A stretch of 44,897 bases of DNA, from the IMG/VR virus record IMGVR_UViG_3300017991_000168, positions 1 through 44,897 of that record; one strand, 5' to 3'. This document shows positions 34-15,425 of this stretch, one piece after another (the stretch's first letter is position 1; every line of letters starts with the position of its first letter). Below the pieces are notes generated by a model. It had not been told where the DNA came from. It saw only the letters and a program-made list of their open reading frames with translations, and did no database searches. The DNA comes from a virus. The position numbers and the translations under genes were made by a program.

Positions 34-636
34 TCATAGTTTTTGGACTTGTCTGATTAGTGAGTAGTGATCAGTAGTAGGGGTAGATTCAACATCCTCT
101 ACTGGTAGTAGTTTTGCCCCAAGCTCTGTTGGAGCTAACAAACCAAGCTCTTGCAGATACTCCAGGCCCTCTGCCACGGTGTCAACTGGGATCACGTTGA
201 AGTCGACAGAACCGTGGTGTTCGTGTCGTCCCTCGAACGCAACTCTGGCCGTCTCGGACCAGTCCTCTCTAGCCATCGTGGTGAGCCATCGTATCGGACT
301 GCTCGCCTTGACCGATGCTTCGGCCAGTACGCGAGCGTTTGACCGTGCCTCCATGACAGTGCTGTAGAACATGCCGTAGATGTTGTCCAGTTCGCCCTCT
401 TCTAGGGCTTGTTCACCGGCGGACATCCATTTGGTCCAAGTACTTCTGGCTATCCCCAAAGCCGTGGCTGCTACGTAGTCGGTTGCACCCAGCCGTATCA
501 ACTCTAGGACACGCTCCAGAAGTTCCGGCGGCATACGTTCCAGCTTACTGAGTCGACGCTGATCCTTCGACCTGGCTTTAAGAAGCTGGCGAATGGTTCG
601 AGGGCGACTTTTTTGGGCGGTGTTTTGTTCACTCAT
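34..636 (-). CDS. terS: Terminase small subunit (TerS)
   Basis: 200 residues. A helix-turn-helix region lies at about 48-71 (GATDYVAATALGIARSTWTKWM is read there as the DNA-binding helices, key residues W67 and W70). A helical oligomerisation segment with the xxDWSExA pattern follows near 124-130. The helix-turn-helix plus this segment is typical of phage small terminases, which bind the packaging site and hand DNA to TerL. The ATG start is preceded by only a weak Shine-Dalgarno. If the window ends are joined, the large terminase starts about 40 bases downstream, which strongly supports the call. The low-complexity C-terminus (about 165-200) is probably variable. Confidence 0.8.
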   Translation of the reverse strand: MSEQNTAQKSRPRTIRQLLKARSKDQRRLSKLERMPPELLERVLELIRLGATDYVAATALGIARSTWTKWMSAGEQALEEGELDNIYGMFYSTVMEARSNARVLAEASVKASSPIRWLTTMAREDWSETARVAFEGRHEHHGSVDFNVIPVDTVAEGLEYLQELGLLAPTELGAKLLPVEDVESTPTTDHYSLIRQVQKL

Positions 637-965: not shown

Positions 966-1166
966 CTACTTCTTCGTCCGCCTTTTGTAGGCCGCAACGC
1001 CACTGCGAATCTCCGCAGCCGACATTCGGCCAACCCCCTTGACGTTGACGTACGCACGCCCACCGCCTTTGACTCGGCTGATGGCAGCACTGTTGGCAGC
1101 CGACTGAGCGGTTCGCATGGCGAGCATGGAGGGGGTACCAAATTCCCACTTGTTTCCAAAAATCAT
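966..1166 (-). CDS. Small basic hypothetical protein
   Basis: 66 residues with a basic C-terminus. Start ATG follows AGGAG with good spacing, 10 bases after the stop of the arginase-fold gene, so it is the last gene of that operon before the terminator. Its C-terminal stretch (MSAAEIRSGVAAYKRR) resembles the MTPEQTEIAVTKYEKRK stretch of the small early protein at 19342-19566, suggesting a shared short helical motif. Function unknown. Confidence 0.65.
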   Translation of the reverse strand: MIFGNKWEFGTPSMLAMRTAQSAANSAAISRVKGGGRAYVNVKGVGRMSAAEIRSGVAAYKRRTKK

Positions 1167-1176
1167 CTGACTTCTC

Positions 1177-1872
1177 CTAAAGATGGATCACGTTGGCTAG
1201 GTAGTCTGATACTGGGTCTGACTCCTCCATCAGTTTAGTCAAAATCTGGTCCGCCGTCAATACTAAATGTTTCCTCGTAAGTGGATTCCATTTAACTGCA
1301 TCCGATCTTACTGGAGAATTAGTAACGAAATCTTTAAGAAGCGGATCAGCAAGAGGGTGTGTCCAGCCTGGTGACTGGCAAATATGGATCAACTGGACCT
1401 CCCCGGCGGGGCAGGGAAAACCCAGTTCCGGAAGGTGCGTGCTTGAGCACATCAACGTGGGCCAGTAAGAATTATTGACCCTCGCCGCCTCAAACTTTAA
1501 CACGGCATCGTTGGGCAGAACGAGTGAGCTTTTACGGCCCGTCACTTCTTGCCAATGCCTTAACCAGGTATCACATCCGATTTGATCTCCACGTTCAGAG
1601 TCGTTGTGGAAATCAAATACAACTAAGTTCTGGTAGTTGAGTGCCGTTTTGTAAATGTCGTGATGATCCTTGGTCACCACTATCGGTGTGTTCGGATAGA
1701 TACCTACCAACGATTGAAGAGTATCCCAGAACGTTGTTAGTCGGCAAAGATTGGGTGGGTGAAGTTTCTGGTTGCCCCAAATGATCTGTTCGTAGAATTC
1801 CCCTACGCCTCCCACGGCTGGGACCCAATCGAAAAAGTAGTCCCAGTCGATTGATATGAGGATGTCCCTCAT
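1177..1872 (-). CDS. Arginase-fold protein, UPF0489/C5orf22-like
   Basis: 231 residues. Metal-ligand-like motifs are visible: ISIDWDYFFDW at 7-17, KDHHD at 68-72, VFDFHNDSE at 85-93 and QSPGW at 166-170. The DFHxD and SPxWT-like motifs resemble the UPF0489 branch of the arginase/deacetylase fold, whose characterised bacterial members are peptide arginases converting arginine side chains in peptides to ornithine. I infer a metallohydrolase; the substrate is unknown. The start codon overlaps the stop of the ParB-DUF4417 gene (4-base overlap), so the two are translationally coupled and probably act together. No signal peptide, so cytoplasmic. Confidence 0.55.
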   Translation of the reverse strand: MRDILISIDWDYFFDWVPAVGGVGEFYEQIIWGNQKLHPPNLCRLTTFWDTLQSLVGIYPNTPIVVTKDHHDIYKTALNYQNLVVFDFHNDSERGDQIGCDTWLRHWQEVTGRKSSLVLPNDAVLKFEAARVNNSYWPTLMCSSTHLPELGFPCPAGEVQLIHICQSPGWTHPLADPLLKDFVTNSPVRSDAVKWNPLTRKHLVLTADQILTKLMEESDPVSDYLANVIHL

Positions 1873-3287
1873 TGTTTGTCAATCTTAGCCCGTCGTTCCT
1901 TCAGGAACCGGTTTCGTGCGGTGGCGAAGTCTTCGATCGAGATGACCTCCAGTGTTTTGTGATCTCGCAGACCGGCATAGTCGATGTACTCGTCCCGGTG
2001 TGCGTCTCCGTAGACTATGATCGATTGAGGTTTGATGATGTCGATGGCAGTGTTGAACGAGGCCGACAACCGTTCCATTCGGTCGTCCATGTCTTCTTCC
2101 GGATAGTGTGAATGCGTTTGGAACGAAATACACGGAACGCCTTCCGGAATACCGGCATACAGAAACTCTTCATCGCCTTCGACCTCCACGTGAGACACAG
2201 AGGGAATCACGTTCATGCCAGCGGTTTGCCAATAGTAGCCAATGTAACGATTGCGGAAGGTGTTGAAAATCCGTTCCGCCATGGACCACTCACGACCGAC
2301 AGAATACTCGGGAGTCATTAGACCGAGATAGCCACGATTGAGTAAACGCTTGGCGTAGCCTAATGGGTCTGCCCACATACGCTCCAAAGGATCGTCATTG
2401 GTGTGGCAACACAGAATGGTCTTGTCGAATGGAAGACCGAACAGGTTGCCGTTACCCAAGATGGTCAGGTAGTACTCGCTCGGGATGTGTGAGTCCGGGG
2501 CTGTCCAGGTGAGGATGGGTTGTGGGCACGCGATCAGTTTGTCAAGCAGCAAGTGCGGAATGTCGTAAGGTGACAATCCGTACTCCCACTTTACCATCGG
2601 CTTGAGTTCGATTGCACCGGGGAGTTCCGGACTGACGGCTTCCAGACTGTCGTCTCGTTTGTCTGCTTCTTCGTCTTTCTTTAGCAGACGTTCAACAGCA
2701 CGCTGAGCCACCTTCTGGACTTGCGGCCCTTTCTGGAGGAGAGAGGAGACGGCTTCAGACGATGAGGTCGGGTTGGACTGGAGTTTCTCTACGGCCTCGC
2801 TGTTGGCCGCCCTCAAGGCGTTGAGTTTTCGGGTGTCTTGAGCAGCCATCATGCCGATGATGTCGAAGGTAGCCAAGGCCTTGAGTTCCTCTTGCTCAGT
2901 CAGTTCCACGTAACGGACCGGTACCGAAGGTTCTCCTTGTTCCAGGGCTAGGTCGAGCCGCATGTGGCCGTTGAGAATCTTGCCGGTGGTCTTGTTTACC
3001 ATCAATTCGTCGAGCCATCCCAGATCGTCTAGGACTCCCCGCATGCGTTCCTGCTGCATGACGGGATGAAGTCTCCAATTGGCGTCATGTTTGATCAGGG
3101 TCGTCGGGTCCACGTTCTCATGACCGACGATTCGATTGGCCCAGGAAGCCAGTTGGTCCTTCAGTTCTTCCTCGACCACCACGTCGTTGAGTTGGGTCGT
3201 GGGTTTCTTCTTGGGCGTGGCAGTGGTTTTCTTCTTGGCCGTGGACGGGGTCTTCTTCTTGGGCGTGGTTTTCTTCTTGACTGGCAT
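1869..3287 (-). CDS. ParB-like nuclease domain fused to DUF4417
   Basis: 472 residues. A Lys/Pro/Thr-rich tail (1-32) is followed by a ParB/Srx-like domain (about 60-150) with the NGHMRLDLAL signature at 106-115, a helical linker, and a DUF4417 domain (about 238-450) recognisable by the LERMWADPLGYAKRLL, TPEYSVGREW, GMNVIPSV and IIVYGD blocks. ParB-like domains in phages bind or cut nucleic acid or hydrolyse CTP; DUF4417 has no established function. The ATG at 3287 is preferred over an upstream TTG because AGGAG lies at ideal distance. A conserved 22-base motif lies 42-63 bases upstream (3329-3350). Coupled to the arginase-fold gene. Confidence 0.75.
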   Translation of the reverse strand: MPVKKKTTPKKKTPSTAKKKTTATPKKKPTTQLNDVVVEEELKDQLASWANRIVGHENVDPTTLIKHDANWRLHPVMQQERMRGVLDDLGWLDELMVNKTTGKILNGHMRLDLALEQGEPSVPVRYVELTEQEELKALATFDIIGMMAAQDTRKLNALRAANSEAVEKLQSNPTSSSEAVSSLLQKGPQVQKVAQRAVERLLKKDEEADKRDDSLEAVSPELPGAIELKPMVKWEYGLSPYDIPHLLLDKLIACPQPILTWTAPDSHIPSEYYLTILGNGNLFGLPFDKTILCCHTNDDPLERMWADPLGYAKRLLNRGYLGLMTPEYSVGREWSMAERIFNTFRNRYIGYYWQTAGMNVIPSVSHVEVEGDEEFLYAGIPEGVPCISFQTHSHYPEEDMDDRMERLSASFNTAIDIIKPQSIIVYGDAHRDEYIDYAGLRDHKTLEVISIEDFATARNRFLKERRAKIDKQ

Positions 3288-3328
3288 CAATTAGCTCCTT
3301 TGTGATGGACAGGTACCCCTGTGGATTT

Positions 3329-3350
3329 GTGATTTCAATTCGGCTTGTTA
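3329..3350 (-). promoter_or_regulatory. Upstream motif, third copy of the 24.5-kb inverted-repeat arm
   Basis: This 22-base stretch matches 24699-24720 at 21 of 22 positions on the same strand. It covers the end of the preceding 72-residue gene and lies just ahead of the ParB-DUF4417 start. On the minus strand it contains TTGAAA, a plausible -35 element, but no convincing -10 follows. A short hairpin (ACAGG/CCTGT) lies between it and the start codon. Regulatory role inferred only from repetition. Confidence 0.4.
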
Positions 3351-3553
3351 TCCGGGCAACATGGAGTTGTTGTTCGAGCAGCAATGTCCTTTCGTCGTGC
3401 CACTAGTTTGGCTTCCGTCTGTTGGTCCAGGTAGTGTTCGATGGCAAAAACGAGGTTACGTAATTCTGCGTTGTAGCTAGCTTTGTACGTGTTACGAGAA
3501 GCATACCAAGCTACGGCTGCTTCCACGACGGCGTCACGTTCACGTTCAAGCAT
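3335..3553 (-). CDS. Small hypothetical protein
   Basis: 72 residues, mostly helical (YNAELRNLVFAIEHYLDQQTE region) with a short CC-containing tail. ATG 3553 is chosen over upstream ATG 3604 because GAGG is well placed and it avoids overlap with the preceding gene, which stops at 3561. The 3' end lies in the repeated motif at 3329-3350. No family recognised. Confidence 0.55.
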   Translation of the reverse strand: MLERERDAVVEAAVAWYASRNTYKASYNAELRNLVFAIEHYLDQQTEAKLVARRKDIAARTTTPCCPDNKPN

Positions 3554-4347: not shown

Positions 4348-4767
4348 TTACCTGTGCCAAGTGATGTGTGCTGAGCCGACCTTGATGTCCAAGGCCATAG
4401 GGATCAGCCATTTAAGGTTGGGGATCATCAAGTTCTGTACTTGTGGATCGGCCCATTTGTACAATCCGACCTTCTCTTCAGTCATACTTTTCGCGTGTTT
4501 GACTGCGGCATTCCAAGTCGTAAAGAAGTGGACCTCGAAGGTGTGTCCGTCCGTGACTGTGCAGAACTTTCTCCATTCATTGAAGGACAAGCCTGTCTCT
4601 TCGTAGAACTCACGTCGCATTGCCGAGAGCGGAAGTTCTTTGTCTAGGTTGTGTCCTCCTATGCCGTTGAGTTTTCCCGCCTGCCAGGCCGGACGTACCT
4701 TCTTTATCAGAAGGACTTCTTCGGTGGTGTGTGCGGGGAATGCGAATCCGCAACAATACGTGACCAT
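4348..4767 (-). CDS. Nudix hydrolase
   Basis: 139 residues, the usual size of a single Nudix domain. A full Nudix box is visible: G38-x5-E44-x7-R52-E53-F-Y-E56-E57-T-G59-L. These residues bind Mg and position the diphosphate of nucleoside diphosphate-X substrates. In phages such enzymes clean dNTP pools, cleave NAD or ADP-ribose, or decap; the substrate cannot be told here. ATG 4767 follows GAGG and leaves no overlap with the upstream protease gene. Confidence 0.9.
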   Translation of the reverse strand: MVTYCCGFAFPAHTTEEVLLIKKVRPAWQAGKLNGIGGHNLDKELPLSAMRREFYEETGLSFNEWRKFCTVTDGHTFEVHFFTTWNAAVKHAKSMTEEKVGLYKWADPQVQNLMIPNLKWLIPMALDIKVGSAHITWHR

Positions 4768-4786
4768 GGTAAAGCCTCTGTAGAGG

Positions 4787-5779
4787 TTAACGGTTCCAGG
4801 GGCGGAAGTCCGGACGTTTGCGAGGGAATCCATCGAATTGGCTGAAGGCGAAGCACTCGCCAGAACGGATCATGTTCTGGACTACGTGGTTGTGTACCCG
4901 AAGGAAACCCACTGGCCACACTTCGTCGGTGATGAAGTCCTTGATCGTGCCATGTACGTCGCCCCACGAGTTTCCGACCGCCCAGTGCGGGACGGGGTCG
5001 GGAATGTAGGCTGCGAGAAACATTTGGTGTGACCATGAACCGTAGGCTTGGTGGAAGCCGTCGCGTGCGGCTTCCATCGTGAAACCTTGGTTGGAGGCGA
5101 TAGTCATGGGGTAGCCGTTTTTGATGGCGGCTATAGCCTCATCCAAGGAGTTGATTGGTGCAGCCTTCTTGATCAGGTGATCATCGCCTTCGTCGAGGAA
5201 CTCTTGAGGCGGACCAGGTGATCTGCCCCAGAGCCGGTCGACGGAACCAGAGTATGGCGGAACATCGGGGAAGTCGGCTCGCAGAACACCGCACTTCACG
5301 GCAGCGGCGGCCATCCAAGCCCCGGTCGAACCATCACCACGTAGACGGAAGCCTCCCATCTTTCGTGAGCAACCGTAATTGAACGGTTCGTAGACTAGAT
5401 GGAACTCTTCTCGATCGCCCGCGATGATCTCTTGGGCTTCGAGGTACTCTTCCACGTTTTTCGCACCAAAGCCTACACACGAGCCGACCTCTTGTGGGTA
5501 GTTAGGTGTGTCTTCGCCGAGCACAGTACGCACCGCATTCCAAAGGCGGACAGCCTCCACTGGGCCGTCGTCCACCAGGTCGTTCAGTGGTAGGTCCATG
5601 ATGACCGAGGGATGTTTTGAACGTACCTCCTGGAGAGAATAGGCAGCCCAGTCACGGCCAACCCAGCCCAGATTGGCGGACGGGAACTGGCCGGTCCTAA
5701 TGGAAGGATTGGGTGGCGGTGATAGGGTGTCGGGGTCAACGTCGAACGGTGTCAGTTGTGAGGCAAGGAACTCGTTCAC
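4787..5779 (-). CDS. Papain-like (C1 family) cysteine protease
   Basis: 330 residues. The catalytic set of papain-like enzymes is visible in order: Q96 and C101 in PQEVGSCVGFG, H251 in GSWSHQMFLAAY and N270 in WAVGNSWGD. No N-terminal signal peptide; the first 90 residues may be a propeptide-like or binding segment. GTG start overlaps the stop of the secreted-protein gene upstream by 4 bases, so the two are probably produced together. Papain-like proteases are unusual in phages. Because no muralytic enzyme was recognised here, a role in breaking a protein-rich host envelope or in host takeover is possible but inferred. Confidence 0.8.
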   Translation of the reverse strand: MNEFLASQLTPFDVDPDTLSPPPNPSIRTGQFPSANLGWVGRDWAAYSLQEVRSKHPSVIMDLPLNDLVDDGPVEAVRLWNAVRTVLGEDTPNYPQEVGSCVGFGAKNVEEYLEAQEIIAGDREEFHLVYEPFNYGCSRKMGGFRLRGDGSTGAWMAAAAVKCGVLRADFPDVPPYSGSVDRLWGRSPGPPQEFLDEGDDHLIKKAAPINSLDEAIAAIKNGYPMTIASNQGFTMEAARDGFHQAYGSWSHQMFLAAYIPDPVPHWAVGNSWGDVHGTIKDFITDEVWPVGFLRVHNHVVQNMIRSGECFAFSQFDGFPRKRPDFRPWNR

Positions 5780-7450: not shown

Positions 7451-7858
7451 TCATTGCTCCTTGGGTGGATGAATGAAGTTGCGTACAACGGCCATCTTCC
7501 TGCTGATAAAGGAATCCAAGTCTTCGGGGTATTCCGCAGGAAGTTTTTGGCCGAGGCTTAAAGCCAAATCCTCCAGGTTGAGGATGATCTCGTAAAGCAG
7601 AAAGCCCAGTTCGTCCAGGCCGTCTTTTTCCTTCTTAGGTGCCGGGTCGGGTACCTTCTTTTCCGATCCGTATACGATACCGTAGGCTCGGAGTATGTTG
7701 CGGATCATGTAGGGTTGCGTGGGCAACGGTCCGGTATTCACGCAGAGGTCGGCTACCTGATCAGGGGTCAGTTCTCCGCTGGTCACACGGTCTCGAAACT
7801 GAATGACCCTGGGGGTCAAGCGTATCGTGGTAGCAAGTTGTTCCTCCGAATAGTTCAT
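7451..7858 (-). CDS. Hypothetical protein
   Basis: 135 residues, with an N-terminal helical segment (EEQLATTIRLTPRVIQFRDR) that could be a helix-turn-helix, and a Pro/Lys linker near 70-80 before a helical C-terminal half. The ATG overlaps the stop of the primase-helicase gene, so it is translated from the same message. Possible DNA-binding or replication accessory protein; not assigned. Confidence 0.6.
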   Translation of the reverse strand: MNYSEEQLATTIRLTPRVIQFRDRVTSGELTPDQVADLCVNTGPLPTQPYMIRNILRAYGIVYGSEKKVPDPAPKKEKDGLDELGFLLYEIILNLEDLALSLGQKLPAEYPEDLDSFISRKMAVVRNFIHPPKEQ

Positions 7859-9993
7859 CGTTTCTTCCCCTTTTGTTTTCTTCTTCCGGGTTCAGTTCCG
7901 CGTACCGAACCAGATTTGCCTCGTTTCGCTTTGCGGACCACAGTGTCACACCTGACCTTTTCCCAAAGGTTCAGGATATCGTCTGTCAGTGCGTAGTAGT
8001 TGTCTTTGTTGCCGGGGCGAAAGCTGCTGGCCTTGGTTTTATTGGCCACGCCAATCTCTGCCATGTCGTTCAGACAACGTTGGGCTGTAGACTTCCCACA
8101 GCGGACGTCGGACATTACCTCCACTACCGAACTGGCTACGTCGCCACGTTCGAGTAGAGCGAAGAATGTATCCAAGTGCCAGCCGTATGCCGTATCCATC
8201 GCCACTTGGTACATGAGTTGGTAGACTTCCATGTCGATGGTGTTCTTACCCCACACAAAGCAAAGCGACTGGCCAAGCTTTATCAACTGGGTAGAGATAC
8301 GTGTACCCACTTCGGGTACGGGACGATAGCTGAGTTCACCTGACTGGCCACGGGCTACACTGGCACGTAGCATAGCAATCAAAGTGGACAGGTAGATCAC
8401 ACGTTCCTTGAGCCACGGCGGAGGCTTGGGGAATTTTGGTATCGGGTCGACGTCCAGGAAGTCACCCACTATGTCTTTCAACGCCGCATCGGATTCTGCT
8501 TTCTTCTCCATGCCGTCGATTGCAGAACGGATGTGGGCAATGTTGTCATGACCATCCTTGATACAGATATACTTGAGGAACCGTTCCCCGAGAGCAGTGT
8601 ATCGGTGAGCATGGATGGCGTGTGTCACACCAGCCACTAACGAGAAGTACAGATCGTCGTAGACCCGTTTGCTGAAGTTTCCATACTCGCGGCAGACGTA
8701 TCCGTCATAGGCACCCCGCAGTGTGGCGTAGAGTTCGTCACGTACGGCCGTTGGGGCACCCATGATCTCGGTAAAGTCTTTCACCACCAGACAACGATAC
8801 CTGAGTCTTGGTAGAAGGGACGGGTCCTCTGTGTCACTGACACCGGCACTGTACCCCGAGACTAGAGTCTGAGAGGTGACCGTGCTGATGTAGTGGCACT
8901 TTGACGTGCCAAGGGTGGCCTTGAGCATGGCCGTCTTACCGGCCCCAGGTTGGCCTACCAAGAACGACCACACAGGGTCACCGGGTATTGCGTTGGACAC
9001 CACGGAAGCCATCATCACGGAGAGGGCATTCTCCATGTCGACGTCGAAGTGGTAGTACTTGTTGAAGAGTTTCAAGACCTTCTTGAAGTCCGGCCGTGGT
9101 GTCTCTCGTTCCCTCTTCCACTTCGATGGGTGGTCAACTACGACGTCCGAAGTCGTTTGGTACTCCACCAGCGACTTGTTGATAGTGTTCAGGACACTAC
9201 GGGGTTTCGAGCCGCTTTCGACAACCAGATCACGGATATCGAAACCTTCTGCAATTCCCGGTGCCCACTCGATGTACTTGAGGCCGTAGGCGATGCCGTC
9301 CAATTGTTGACAGACTTTTTGCATGTAGCGAGATGCGTTCGTGCTGTTGTCGTACAACAACCAGACGTTCCTGCGGTGGAATAGCTCCTGCCATCGAGTT
9401 TTCCAGATGGCCTCACCAGGTACACCAATCGGAATACCAGGTGACTTGGTCCTCTTCAACACCCACTTCATTGCCGCCGTATCCCAGAACCCTTCACACA
9501 AGTAGATAGGGGCATCCGGGGCACTATCCAACTCATCTTTGATGGCGTTGTAGAGATGGGACTCCGAGTTCGCTGTTGCGTAGACTGGGGCCTTTTCACC
9601 ATCCTCTTTCGGTGTCCACAGATACACCGTGGCAGGTTCTAGGCCGTCACCCTCAAAAGCGGGAAGCAACCAGGTACCGCCATCGTAGGCGACTTTCATC
9701 TCTTCCAAGACACCGGCATTCAGACCTGGCCGCAATGAGGCGAGGTTCTTGTAGTGTGTTGGCGTGGTCTTGGTATAGGCATCTTGCCACAACTGACGGA
9801 CAAAGGTAGTTGTGTTGCCTTGCTTTTTGCACTGCCAACATCTCCACTGTCCGGTATCGAGTTTCACCGACAGGGCGTTGTGGCCACAAAAAGGGCAATC
9901 CCCAACGGCGTTCTTCTCGGTCTGATCAACAACTAAGCCTACCCCGTATTGCTCGAAGGTAGCGACGTGGTTGGTCTTCTTGCCTTTAGACAT
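7855..9993 (-). CDS. DNA primase-helicase
   Basis: 712 residues. A zinc ribbon at the N-terminus (C33, C36, C52, C55) is followed by a TOPRIM-like region (E167 in CEGFWD, D215 in LLYDN) and an AAA-type helicase part with Walker A GQPGAGKT at 347-354. This combination marks a bifunctional replicative primase-helicase that primes lagging strands and unwinds at the fork. A basic C-terminal tail (KRGKSGSVRGTEPGRRKQKG) follows. ATG 9993 is chosen because GGAG lies 7 bases upstream; ATG 9999 would be too close. Confidence 0.85.
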   Translation of the reverse strand: MSKGKKTNHVATFEQYGVGLVVDQTEKNAVGDCPFCGHNALSVKLDTGQWRCWQCKKQGNTTTFVRQLWQDAYTKTTPTHYKNLASLRPGLNAGVLEEMKVAYDGGTWLLPAFEGDGLEPATVYLWTPKEDGEKAPVYATANSESHLYNAIKDELDSAPDAPIYLCEGFWDTAAMKWVLKRTKSPGIPIGVPGEAIWKTRWQELFHRRNVWLLYDNSTNASRYMQKVCQQLDGIAYGLKYIEWAPGIAEGFDIRDLVVESGSKPRSVLNTINKSLVEYQTTSDVVVDHPSKWKRERETPRPDFKKVLKLFNKYYHFDVDMENALSVMMASVVSNAIPGDPVWSFLVGQPGAGKTAMLKATLGTSKCHYISTVTSQTLVSGYSAGVSDTEDPSLLPRLRYRCLVVKDFTEIMGAPTAVRDELYATLRGAYDGYVCREYGNFSKRVYDDLYFSLVAGVTHAIHAHRYTALGERFLKYICIKDGHDNIAHIRSAIDGMEKKAESDAALKDIVGDFLDVDPIPKFPKPPPWLKERVIYLSTLIAMLRASVARGQSGELSYRPVPEVGTRISTQLIKLGQSLCFVWGKNTIDMEVYQLMYQVAMDTAYGWHLDTFFALLERGDVASSVVEVMSDVRCGKSTAQRCLNDMAEIGVANKTKASSFRPGNKDNYYALTDDILNLWEKVRCDTVVRKAKRGKSGSVRGTEPGRRKQKGKKR

Positions 9994-10022
9994 ACACATG
10001 CTCCATCAAAATCTCTAGACAT
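9939..10022 (-). CDS. Possible 27-residue leader peptide
   Basis: An out-of-frame ORF with an excellent AAGGAG 7 bases before its ATG. It spans the primase start codon and stops 55 bases inside the primase gene. It may couple or damp primase translation as a leader peptide. It could be chance, since nothing else supports it. Confidence 0.3.
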   Translation of the reverse strand: MSRDFDGACVCLKARRPTTSLPSSNTG

Positions 10023-13600: not shown

Positions 13601-14776
13601 TCACCTTTCGATGAGTTCAGTAAACACTCGCCGCTCTTTTTTGTAGTGGGCGTAGTTGGCATGTACGATGATATCGAAAACATCGCACGGCCCGTAGGGA
13701 CCCACAAGAGCGTCCGAGTTGAGGTAGTGGTGTTCGGAATTGAAGGGGTTGTTCAAGTCCAAGCTGTCCCACCACTTCTTGATCCGATTCACGATAGGGA
13801 TCAGGGTCCTAGTGATGAATTCATCAATCTCTTTTGGACCGATGTCGTATGTGTACCGGTTGAACCAGTATGACGGCACCTTCTTCTTTTTCGTCTTCCG
13901 TGTGTCGTCTACGATTGCCTCCTCTATTCGGGCACAGTATTCTGGAATGGATTCCCCAACGTGGGGCTTTGAACCTGGCATGCGTACAACGTCGAAACCG
14001 TAGGAGGTGATGGGGCAAGCGTGCAGTACCTGCATAGCGTGGGTATACGCTGCAAGTTGGAAATTGAAATACATGCTGTTGGTAATATCCATCTCGTTGA
14101 TCTTGCTTTTGAGTTTGGTATCCCAGACGCTCCATCCTTCTGGAAAGGATCGCAGTTGGTCAACCCTCCCGCGAAACCGTACTCCTGCGAGGTCGATATC
14201 GAAGACACCCTCAGCCTCTATCAACTCAGACTCTTTGCTGTCCATCTCCGCCCAGTATGCCAGATAGTGACTGAGCAGGACGACGCACAAACCCTCGCAC
14301 ATGTCCCAGACGTGACGTTGTTTGTTCGTCAAGGACATAGGCCGCTCCCTCGTAACGTGGAACGACACGGCCTTTTTGGCGGCAATGCGTATTGCCTTTT
14401 CGTCCTTCTTCCACGGTACGAACAGCATGTCGTTGTGGAGTATGTCAAGGCAGTCGTGAAACATGCTGCCAAGTACGAGTGGTTGACGAACCGCTTTCGT
14501 ACGCCAACCCTCAACGACTGATACCCTGAATTGTTCAGGGCAGGTAAGGAACTTCTTTATGGACGACTGTGTCAGTCCGTCTCTGTACAAGTCCCAAACG
14601 GGGTCGGACTTACCCCAGATTTTACGCTTTGGCTTCGCCTTTGGTTTTGGTTTTGGCTTTGGTTTGGGTTTTGGCTTTGGTTTTGGTTTGGGTTTTGCCT
14701 TTGCCTTGGGTTTTGGTTTTGGTTTGCTGGGGGCGGTGGACGGCCGTTTTGAAGGGGAACGTTTTTTTACCGGCAT
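13601..14776 (-). CDS. Cas4/RecB-like PD-(D/E)XK nuclease with repetitive basic tail
   Basis: 391 residues. A low-complexity Lys-Pro/Lys-Ala tail at about 18-52 is followed by a nuclease core: LTQSSIKKFLTCPEQF (68-83), LGSMFHDCLD with the conserved H, FRGRVDQL (D), WSVWDTKLKSK (DxK) and FQLAAYTHAM (QxxxY motif). No cluster of four cysteines, so no Fe-S site as in true Cas4. Probably an exonuclease for recombination and host DNA turnover. ATG 14776 follows AAGGA. The tail is encoded by the hexamer repeat shared out of frame with the uracil-DNA glycosylase gene. Confidence 0.8.
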   Translation of the reverse strand: MPVKKRSPSKRPSTAPSKPKPKPKAKAKPKPKPKPKPKPKPKPKPKAKPKRKIWGKSDPVWDLYRDGLTQSSIKKFLTCPEQFRVSVVEGWRTKAVRQPLVLGSMFHDCLDILHNDMLFVPWKKDEKAIRIAAKKAVSFHVTRERPMSLTNKQRHVWDMCEGLCVVLLSHYLAYWAEMDSKESELIEAEGVFDIDLAGVRFRGRVDQLRSFPEGWSVWDTKLKSKINEMDITNSMYFNFQLAAYTHAMQVLHACPITSYGFDVVRMPGSKPHVGESIPEYCARIEEAIVDDTRKTKKKKVPSYWFNRYTYDIGPKEIDEFITRTLIPIVNRIKKWWDSLDLNNPFNSEHHYLNSDALVGPYGPCDVFDIIVHANYAHYKKERRVFTELIER

Positions 14777-15425
14777 TTCGGTCCTTTCTGTGCAGAGCCT
14801 GACACAACGCATCAACCAGTTTGTCGTGAGCAATGCAGTAAGTGTTTGAACCTACACCTCCATTCCGTTTGATGTAGGACGGATGCCACAAGTCACATAC
14901 TGATAAGCCTTCGTCAGCATCGCACGCAATGCGGCGTCCTATTGGGGACTCCTGTGCGACCTTGCCGAGCAGAACCACCAGACGCAACTCCGGGCGGAGT
15001 AGGTTGTAGAGGTTGAGGATACGGGGGTGGCACGCCATTACTTCGTCCAGGAAGGGCTGACGGAAGTTGTGACCCTCACCCGGAGTGATCGGTCTACAGC
15101 CCATCACGTTGGCGAACCCGTAGCTGTACTTGTCGACGTGGGTAAAGGTTTCTTCCACCATCGCTCTAAGCACAGAACCGGCTGGTCCAACAAAGGGTAC
15201 CCCCAGATTATCCTCTTCCCGCCCAGGTGCTTCACCGATGAATAGCACCTCGAACGGGAATGTAGGAGGGTCACAGAATAGCAGGCAGTGGTTGTGGGCA
15301 ATCTTTCCGAGGCGACAGTCCTGACAATGGCACCACCGTTGTCTGTGACTCTTCCAGGGTGACTTGTAACCACTTCGTGCAACGACTCCGTTAACGTTAA
15401 AACTTGGTAGAACGATCTTTGCCAT
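14622..15425 (-). CDS. Uracil-DNA glycosylase, Fe-S family 4-like
   Basis: 267 residues. Visible: CxxC (C34, C37), FIGEAPGREED (motif 1), PFVGPAG, NVMGCRPITPG and EVMACHPRI with the two distal cluster cysteines, and the DLWHPSYIKRN motif. These fit a [4Fe-4S] family 4 glycosylase removing uracil from DNA. The C-terminal 55 residues form a Lys-Thr/Gly tail from hexamer-repeat DNA that overlaps the nuclease start by 155 bases. The catalytic core is complete without it. Confidence 0.85.
   Translation of the reverse strand: MAKIVLPSFNVNGVVARSGYKSPWKSHRQRWCHCQDCRLGKIAHNHCLLFCDPPTFPFEVLFIGEAPGREEDNLGVPFVGPAGSVLRAMVEETFTHVDKYSYGFANVMGCRPITPGEGHNFRQPFLDEVMACHPRILNLYNLLRPELRLVVLLGKVAQESPIGRRIACDADEGLSVCDLWHPSYIKRNGGVGSNTYCIAHDKLVDALCQALHRKDRNAGKKTFPFKTAVHRPQQTKTKTQGKGKTQTKTKAKTQTKAKTKTKGEAKA
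14627..14727. repeat. Hexamer repeat coding in two frames
   Basis: A degenerate run of about 16 GGNTTN-type hexamers on the plus strand. On the minus strand one frame reads Lys-Pro/Lys-Ala (nuclease N-terminus) and another Lys-Thr/Gln-Thr (glycosylase C-terminus). A six-base unit keeps both frames open whatever the copy number. Confidence 0.85.

What the first reader, a model, noticed from the sequence alone, without database searches (positions are those of the whole stretch)
1177..3287. ParB-DUF4417 fusion coupled to an arginase-fold protein
A ParB-like nuclease domain fused to DUF4417 overlaps by 4 bases a protein with arginase-fold motifs (DFHND, KDHHD, QSPGW) resembling UPF0489/peptide arginases. 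The pair is expressed as one unit with its own upstream motif and terminator. A phage enzyme that alters arginine side chains alongside a nucleic-acid-binding partner would be an unusual anti-defence or takeover system. Family calls are from recognition; the joint function is inference.
Basis: partly seen in the sequence, partly recalled or inferred. Interest (0 to 1): 0.7.

Follow-up and report, generated by a model that had tools for sequence, protein, structure and literature searches.

The report
Phage arginase-like enzyme beside ParB-DUF4417
A phage carries a rare arginase-like metal enzyme whose key metal-binding segment has moved to the front of the protein, next to a common gene of the packaging region (ParB-DUF4417); the enzyme assignment holds up, but the idea that the two form a working pair does not.

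Summary
In detail: P2 (1869-3287, -) is a 472-aa ParB-DUF4417 fusion, and P1 (1177-1872, -) a 231-aa protein overlapping it by ATGA. P1 matches no family model, but pattern and profile work linked it to eleven relatives: viral contigs, marine cyanophages (one annotated 'arginase-like amidino hydrolase'), plasmids ('UPF0489 family protein') and three cellular genomes. Across nine aligned proteins the only invariant columns are D9, D11, H70, D87, H89 and D91, the counterparts of the six Mn ligands of peptide arginase OspR, plus W49, S167 and P168. In all of them the DIDLD metal strand is N-terminal, not before the xSP strand as in classical UPF0489: a relocated segment, not a circular permutation. 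P1 is most likely a Mn-dependent ureohydrolase-superfamily enzyme; its substrate is unknown, and the fold prediction was too weak to confirm the fold. ParB-DUF4417 near the terminase recurs in unrelated phages without P1; records of P1 relatives lack DUF4417 (0 of 8; reverse 0 of 5). A joint takeover or anti-defence system is therefore unsupported. The transcription unit also holds a third gene, a basic 66-aa ORF, before the terminator.

The parts
1869..3287 (-). P2, 472 aa: basic Lys-rich N-terminus (1-30), ParB-CTPase-fold-like domain (about 49-165, P motif G107HMR110), DUF4417 (about 264-460)
   Evidence: PF14386 E 5.6e-21; phrog_940 E 1.4e-29; phrog_620 E 5.3e-9; ParB part 44.5% identical to that of a Stenotrophomonas phage DNA methylase; alignment with seven DUF4417 phage proteins
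1177..1872 (-). P1, 231 aa: DIDLD-first UPF0489/ureohydrolase-superfamily protein; predicted Mn ligands D9, D11, H70, D87, H89, D91; xSP motif S167-P168
   Evidence: HMM built without P1 scores P1 14.6 bits (E 0.012 over 12,339 ORFs), best of 5000 shuffles 9.7
1869..1872 (-). ATGA overlap: start of P1 and stop of P2 (translational coupling inferred)
966..1166 (-). ORF66: 66-aa basic protein (7 Arg, 6 Lys, 2 Glu, 0 Asp) with AGGAG site, 10 bases after the P1 stop; third gene of the unit
   Evidence: no family or phage relative
914..945 (-). intrinsic terminator: 14-bp stem, 4-base loop, T-rich tail
   Evidence: -32.2 kcal/mol for 896-965, z -6.7
3295..3299 (-). ribosome-binding site AGGAG, 7 bases upstream of the P2 ATG
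34..636 (-). terminase small subunit, downstream neighbour (context)
   Evidence: phrog_4102 E 1.5e-8

Best explanation
P1 is a phage-borne member of the arginase (ureohydrolase) superfamily, of the UPF0489 kind but in a rearranged form in which the DxDxD metal-binding strand is at the N-terminus. It most likely binds a binuclear Mn cluster through D9, D11, H70, D87, H89 and D91 and hydrolyses a guanidino-type or similar C-N bond on a peptide, protein or small molecule not identified here. It is an accessory gene inserted between a ParB-DUF4417 gene and the small terminase gene, co-transcribed with the former (ParB-DUF4417, P1, ORF66, terminator), with translation coupled by ATGA. ParB-DUF4417 is a separate, common phage gene often found near the terminase genes, probably an NTP-binding, DNA-associated protein. 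Shown: gene structure, family membership of P2, conserved metal-ligand columns and rearranged motif order of P1 and relatives, absence of pair recurrence in the records tested. Inferred: metal binding, hydrolase chemistry, accessory role, transcription unit.
For: Invariant columns of nine relatives are the six ligand positions plus W49, S167 and P168; these correspond to the EEH, DxHxD and LDIDLDYF ligands of OspR (PMC10028609). Relatives are independently annotated 'UPF0489 family protein' and 'arginase-like amidino hydrolase'. The relative L219 hits PF12640 (E 5.4e-5, just under cut-off), agmatinase TIGR01230 (E 0.0016) and the peptide arginase model (E 0.026). hhalign to classical UPF0489 gives three blocks in the order 2-1-3 with scores 34.5, 30.9 and 19.0 against a best of 18.2 in 300 column shuffles. 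The family profile retrieves an agmatinase-like protein with GGEHS/DAHAD/FDLDGFD motifs at E 8.9e-4. ParB-DUF4417 or DUF4417 genes lie upstream of terminase in Streptococcus, Lactococcus and Gordonia phages without P1.
Against: P1 by itself is marginal: no Pfam, PHROG or NCBIfam hit, also not when rearranged for Pfam; leave-one-out HMM score only 14.6 bits, 11.9 with two more members. L035 was found with a motif taken from P1, which is partly circular. AlphaFold on three sequences gave pLDDT 49, pTM 0.52, and the structure searches listed no arginase. No substrate, metal or activity data exist. UPF0489 includes members of unknown activity, so hydrolysis of arginine is not assured.
Confidence: 0.62

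Rival explanations
1. P1 and P2 form a dedicated two-gene takeover or anti-defence system in which P1 deguanidinates arginines in host or defence proteins while P2 binds or cuts nucleic acid.
For: ATGA overlap and shared transcription unit; all metal ligands of peptide arginases kept; phage ParB fusions suspected in anti-defence (PMC12704722).
Against: No DUF4417 in eight whole records holding P1 relatives; no P1 relative in five whole DUF4417 phage genomes or in the neighbourhoods of two more. A 4-base overlap is ordinary in phage operons; in cyanophages S-SCSM1 and SynMITS9220M01 the P1 relative overlaps other, unrelated genes by 4 bases.
Confidence: 0.07
2. P1 is a peptide arginase that converts Arg to Orn in a phage-encoded substrate, most simply the adjacent basic 66-aa ORF66 product (7 Arg), in the way RiPP peptide arginases act on neighbouring precursor peptides.
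For: OspR-type ligand set; Arg-rich small ORF directly downstream in the same unit; RiPP arginases act on adjacent precursors (PMC12703449).
Against: ORF66 has no detectable relatives, and no annotated neighbour of the P1 relatives examined is described as a precursor. No other RiPP enzyme was recognised among the window genes scanned.
Confidence: 0.1
3. P1 acts on a small molecule (arginine, agmatine, another guanidino compound) as an auxiliary metabolic enzyme.
For: The family profile reaches agmatinase; the cyanophage relative is annotated 'arginase-like amidino hydrolase' and sits near metabolic genes such as zwf.
Against: OspR, of the nearer UPF0489 kind, does not accept free arginine (PMC10028609). 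The window's gene lies in the packaging region.
Confidence: 0.25
4. P1 is a DHH-type phosphoesterase, the DHH at 69-71 being its motif III.
For: Literal DHH and DxD motifs in P1.
Against: Only the first His is conserved in relatives (HHE, NHG, RHDE, DHDA); no Pfam hit to DHH families; profile links are to UPF0489 and agmatinase instead.
Confidence: 0.03

Closest known systems
UPF0489 (PF12640) and peptide arginases OspR, FlmR/OhkR, BipC
   Same: Same six metal-ligand residues (His; Asp-x-His-x-Asp; Asp-x-Asp) in similar motifs, and the xSP motif seen in classical UPF0489 proteins.
   Different: P1 and its relatives carry the DxDxD strand at the N-terminus; in classical members it lies between the DxHxD region and the xSP strand. 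P1 itself does not reach PF12640.
Synechococcus phage S-SCSM1 gp210 (YP_010669855, 'arginase-like amidino hydrolase') and SynMITS9220M01_143
   Same: Phage genes with the same motif order and ligands.
   Different: About 17-20% identical to P1; other gene neighbourhoods, no DUF4417 in the genome.
Plasmid 'UPF0489 family protein' of Rhodococcus and Agrobacterium (WP_193595849, WP_104680538)
   Same: Same DIDLD-first order and CQSPGYTP-like C-terminal motif.
   Different: Plasmid context near recombinase genes; about 22-24% identical.
phrog_940 / ParB-DUF4417 proteins (Streptococcus Javan174, Gordonia GMA6)
   Same: P2 has the same two-domain order as both, and the terminase-region location of Javan174.
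   Different: About 23% identity; no P1 relative there. Many mycobacteriophage homologues carry DUF4417 without the ParB part.

Membership tests
UPF0489 / peptide arginase (PF12640) | Match to the Pfam or NCBIfam model | tested here: not met
   P1: no hit at E up to 10 in native order or, for Pfam, rearranged. Its relative L219 hits PF12640 at 24.1 bits, under the 27-bit cut-off.
UPF0489 / peptide arginase (PF12640) | Six metal-ligand residues in His, DxHxD and DxD motifs | tested here: met
   D9, D11, H70, D87, H89, D91 invariant over nine sequences, matched to OspR motifs from PMC10028609.
UPF0489 / peptide arginase (PF12640) | Motif order His - DxHxD - LDIDLDYF | tested here: not met
   DIDLD is first in P1 and all eleven relatives (S-RSM4: N-terminal part only); hhalign blocks align in order 2-1-3.
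UPF0489 / peptide arginase (PF12640) | Profile-level homology to classical members | tested here: met
   hhalign block scores 34.5 and 30.9 against at most 18.2 in 300 column shuffles; this is for the family alignment that includes P1, not for P1 alone.
Arginase (ureohydrolase) superfamily | Three-layer alpha/beta arginase fold | tested here: inconclusive
   Model pLDDT 49, pTM 0.52; best Foldseek E 0.06, best VIA Z 5.1, unrelated Rossmann-like chains.
Arginase (ureohydrolase) superfamily | Binuclear Mn site and urea-releasing activity | not testable with these tools
   Needs expression and assay.
ParB-CTPase-fold protein fused to DUF4417 | DUF4417 domain | tested here: met
   PF14386 75.3 bits, cut-off 28.9.
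ParB-CTPase-fold protein fused to DUF4417 | ParB-fold domain with P motif GxxR | tested here: met
   phrog_620 and phrog_498 matches within 27-186; G107HMR110. By sequence only; Pfam's ParB model itself was not reported.
ParB-CTPase-fold protein fused to DUF4417 | NTP binding | not testable with these tools
   Other phage ParB fusions bind CTP or ATP (PMC12704722).
Two-gene P1-P2 system | Recurrence of the pair in other genomes | tested here: not met
   0 of 8 records of P1 relatives hold DUF4417; 0 of 5 whole DUF4417 phages hold a P1 relative; none in seven DUF4417 neighbourhoods.

The most novel reading that the evidence does not exclude
A phage peptide or protein arginase of rearranged topology converts arginines to ornithines in a protein of the packaging region (ORF66, ParB-DUF4417 or a terminase subunit) or of the host, a post-translational modification not recorded for phages in the papers searched.
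Probability: 0.1. Interest if true: 0.75.

Novelty: new variant of a known kind. Interest (0 to 1): 0.38.

Why it matters
It points to a small, rare group of arginase-superfamily proteins in phages, plasmids and a few bacteria in which one metal-binding strand has been moved from the C-terminal half to the N-terminus while the last strand stayed in place. If the fold is kept, that is a segment relocation that Pfam and PHROG models miss, which would explain why the phage members are mostly 'hypothetical'. It gives a clear, cheap enzyme assay for phage genes without a function. It also suggests that the gene next to DUF4417 in the terminase region is variable cargo rather than a fixed partner.

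Tried and rejected
tblastn of P1 against 50,697 phages and 72,556 plasmids: nothing. Close-relative scans of viral contigs with P1 or P2: only the same phage, or nothing; with the two-row alignment: nothing; genome scan with L035: nothing. Degenerate HH...DxHxD DNA patterns gave about 180 loci, of which only L035 and, by later HMM, L063 are relatives. A two-row profile against 392 genomes of one phylum gave only chance matches. A simple circular permutation of P1 gave no Pfam or relevant PDB hit and does not fit, since the xSP strand stays C-terminal. Single-sequence fold: pLDDT 36. Structure searches with the three-row model listed no arginase. PDB sequence searches gave only chance hits. A promoter or repeated phage motif upstream of P2: not found. 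DHH phosphoesterase reading rejected because the second His is not conserved.

Full report
What was checked. The two ORFs are present as described. P2 runs from an ATG at 3287 (AGGAG seven bases upstream) to a stop at 1869-1871; P1 starts at 1872, so that ATGA is shared. The neighbouring main genes run on the same strand. No sigma-70-like promoter lies just upstream of P2 and the GGGGTACCT motif there occurs once.

P2. DUF4417 is clear (PF14386, 75.3 bits). The N-terminal half is ParB-like by PHROGs, by 44.5% identity to part of a Stenotrophomonas phage DNA methylase and by the GxxR motif. The protein matches phrog_940 nearly end to end. ParB-DUF4417 fusions in phages are already described in a 2025 survey (PMC12704722). 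In several phages the DUF4417 gene lies shortly upstream of the terminase genes: Streptococcus Javan174 and Javan88, Lactococcus proPhi6 and Gordonia Boohoo, as in the window, where TerS is at 34-636. In Gordonia GMA6 and Mycobacterium Krypton555 no terminase is annotated nearby. Between DUF4417 and terminase stand different things: a VIP2-like toxin and an HNH gene in Boohoo, unnamed ORFs elsewhere, P1 here.

P1. No library recognised it. [quoted passage not shown] P1 has KDHHD, DFHND and IDWDYF, thus all three, but with the last one moved to the N-terminus. A degenerate DNA pattern for DHH...DxHxD brought one viral relative, L035, with the same order. A Pfam search for UPF0489 in genomes of one phylum brought L219, a sub-threshold UPF0489 protein again with DIDLDFF first and THSPQYTP at the end. 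From it came plasmid proteins, two of them named 'UPF0489 family protein'. An HMM of these picked L063 out of the fetched viral loci, and L063 led to three cyanophage proteins, one annotated 'arginase-like amidino hydrolase'. Two more cellular members came from about 730 further genomes, so the group is rare.

How strong is the link. In an alignment of nine, the invariant columns are D9, D11, W49, H70, D87, H89, D91, S167, P168. A profile built without P1 gives P1 14.6 bits, E 0.012 over 12,339 ORFs, above all 5000 shuffles of P1 (best 9.7); with two more members the score is 11.9 against 8.2. That is modest for P1 alone, and one member (L035) was found through a P1 motif. For the family as a whole, hhalign against six classical UPF0489 proteins gives three blocks, HxE...DxHxD, DIDLD and xSP, with scores 34.5, 30.9 and 19.0; the best of 300 column-shuffled controls is 18.2. 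The blocks come in the order 2-1-3, which is the rearrangement seen by eye. The same family profile also finds an agmatinase-like protein in an unrelated genome. The six-ligand set argues for a binuclear Mn site rather than the mononuclear site of the deacetylases of the same superfamily (established knowledge). The second His of DHH is not conserved, which speaks against the DHH phosphoesterase reading.

What could not be shown. The fold: only three sequences could be given to AlphaFold; the model (pLDDT 49, pTM 0.52) has its better strands at 3-10, 64-67 and 82-87, each leading into a ligand motif, but structure searches list only common Rossmann-like chains. The activity and substrate are unknown. 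UPF0489 members assayed in the papers read are peptide arginases of RiPP pathways, and OspR refuses free arginine; the cyanophage annotation suggests small-molecule hydrolysis but is only an annotation.

The pair. No DUF4417 was found in the eight whole records of P1 relatives. No P1 relative was found in five whole DUF4417 phage genomes or in seven DUF4417 neighbourhoods. The only other trace of P1 itself is a contig of the same phage that breaks off inside P1. My preferred reading is an accessory enzyme inserted into a terminase-linked operon.

Verdict. Gene calls right; arginase-superfamily assignment of P1 probable (about 0.85 on its own, my estimate); a rearranged-order variant of UPF0489, not found described in the papers I could search (few searches, open-access only); P1-P2 system not supported.

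Noticed in passing
window ends 1 and 44897; L003 about 1580-3521: A contig of the same phage (IMGVR_UViG_3300018080_000352) bridges the two ends of the window with about 1.9 kb that the window lacks (small ORFs between TerS and TerL), so the genome is probably circular or circularly permuted and about 46.8 kb.
   Followed up: partly
L001/L003 position 1: That same-phage contig breaks off inside P1 at residue 99, leaving P1 incomplete there.
   Followed up: no
966-1166 (-): Orphan 66-aa protein with 7 Arg, 6 Lys and only 2 acidic residues directly after P1; no relatives found.
   Followed up: partly
4787-5779 (-) and 4348-4833 (-): A gene with weak C1-peptidase similarity (E 0.42) overlapping a Nudix gene (E 8e-7).
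   Followed up: no
7855-9999 (-): 714-aa protein joining a primase-type zinc ribbon to a P-loop region with weak Zeta-toxin/AAA similarity.
   Followed up: no
14622-15425 (-): Uracil-DNA glycosylase superfamily protein (PF03167, E 1.9e-18) beside a PD-(D/E)XK exonuclease and a Sak4-like protein.
   Followed up: no
L223 about 2900-3450 (Streptococcus phage phi-SsuFJSM5_rum): A DIDLD-first UPF0489-like gene split into two ORFs, with matches in several Streptococcus suis phage records; apparently a decaying relative.
   Followed up: no
L229, L234: In Mycobacterium (Echild) and Gordonia (Boohoo) phages the DUF4417 gene is followed directly by a gene annotated VIP2-like toxin and small genes, one annotated immunity protein in Echild.
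   Followed up: no
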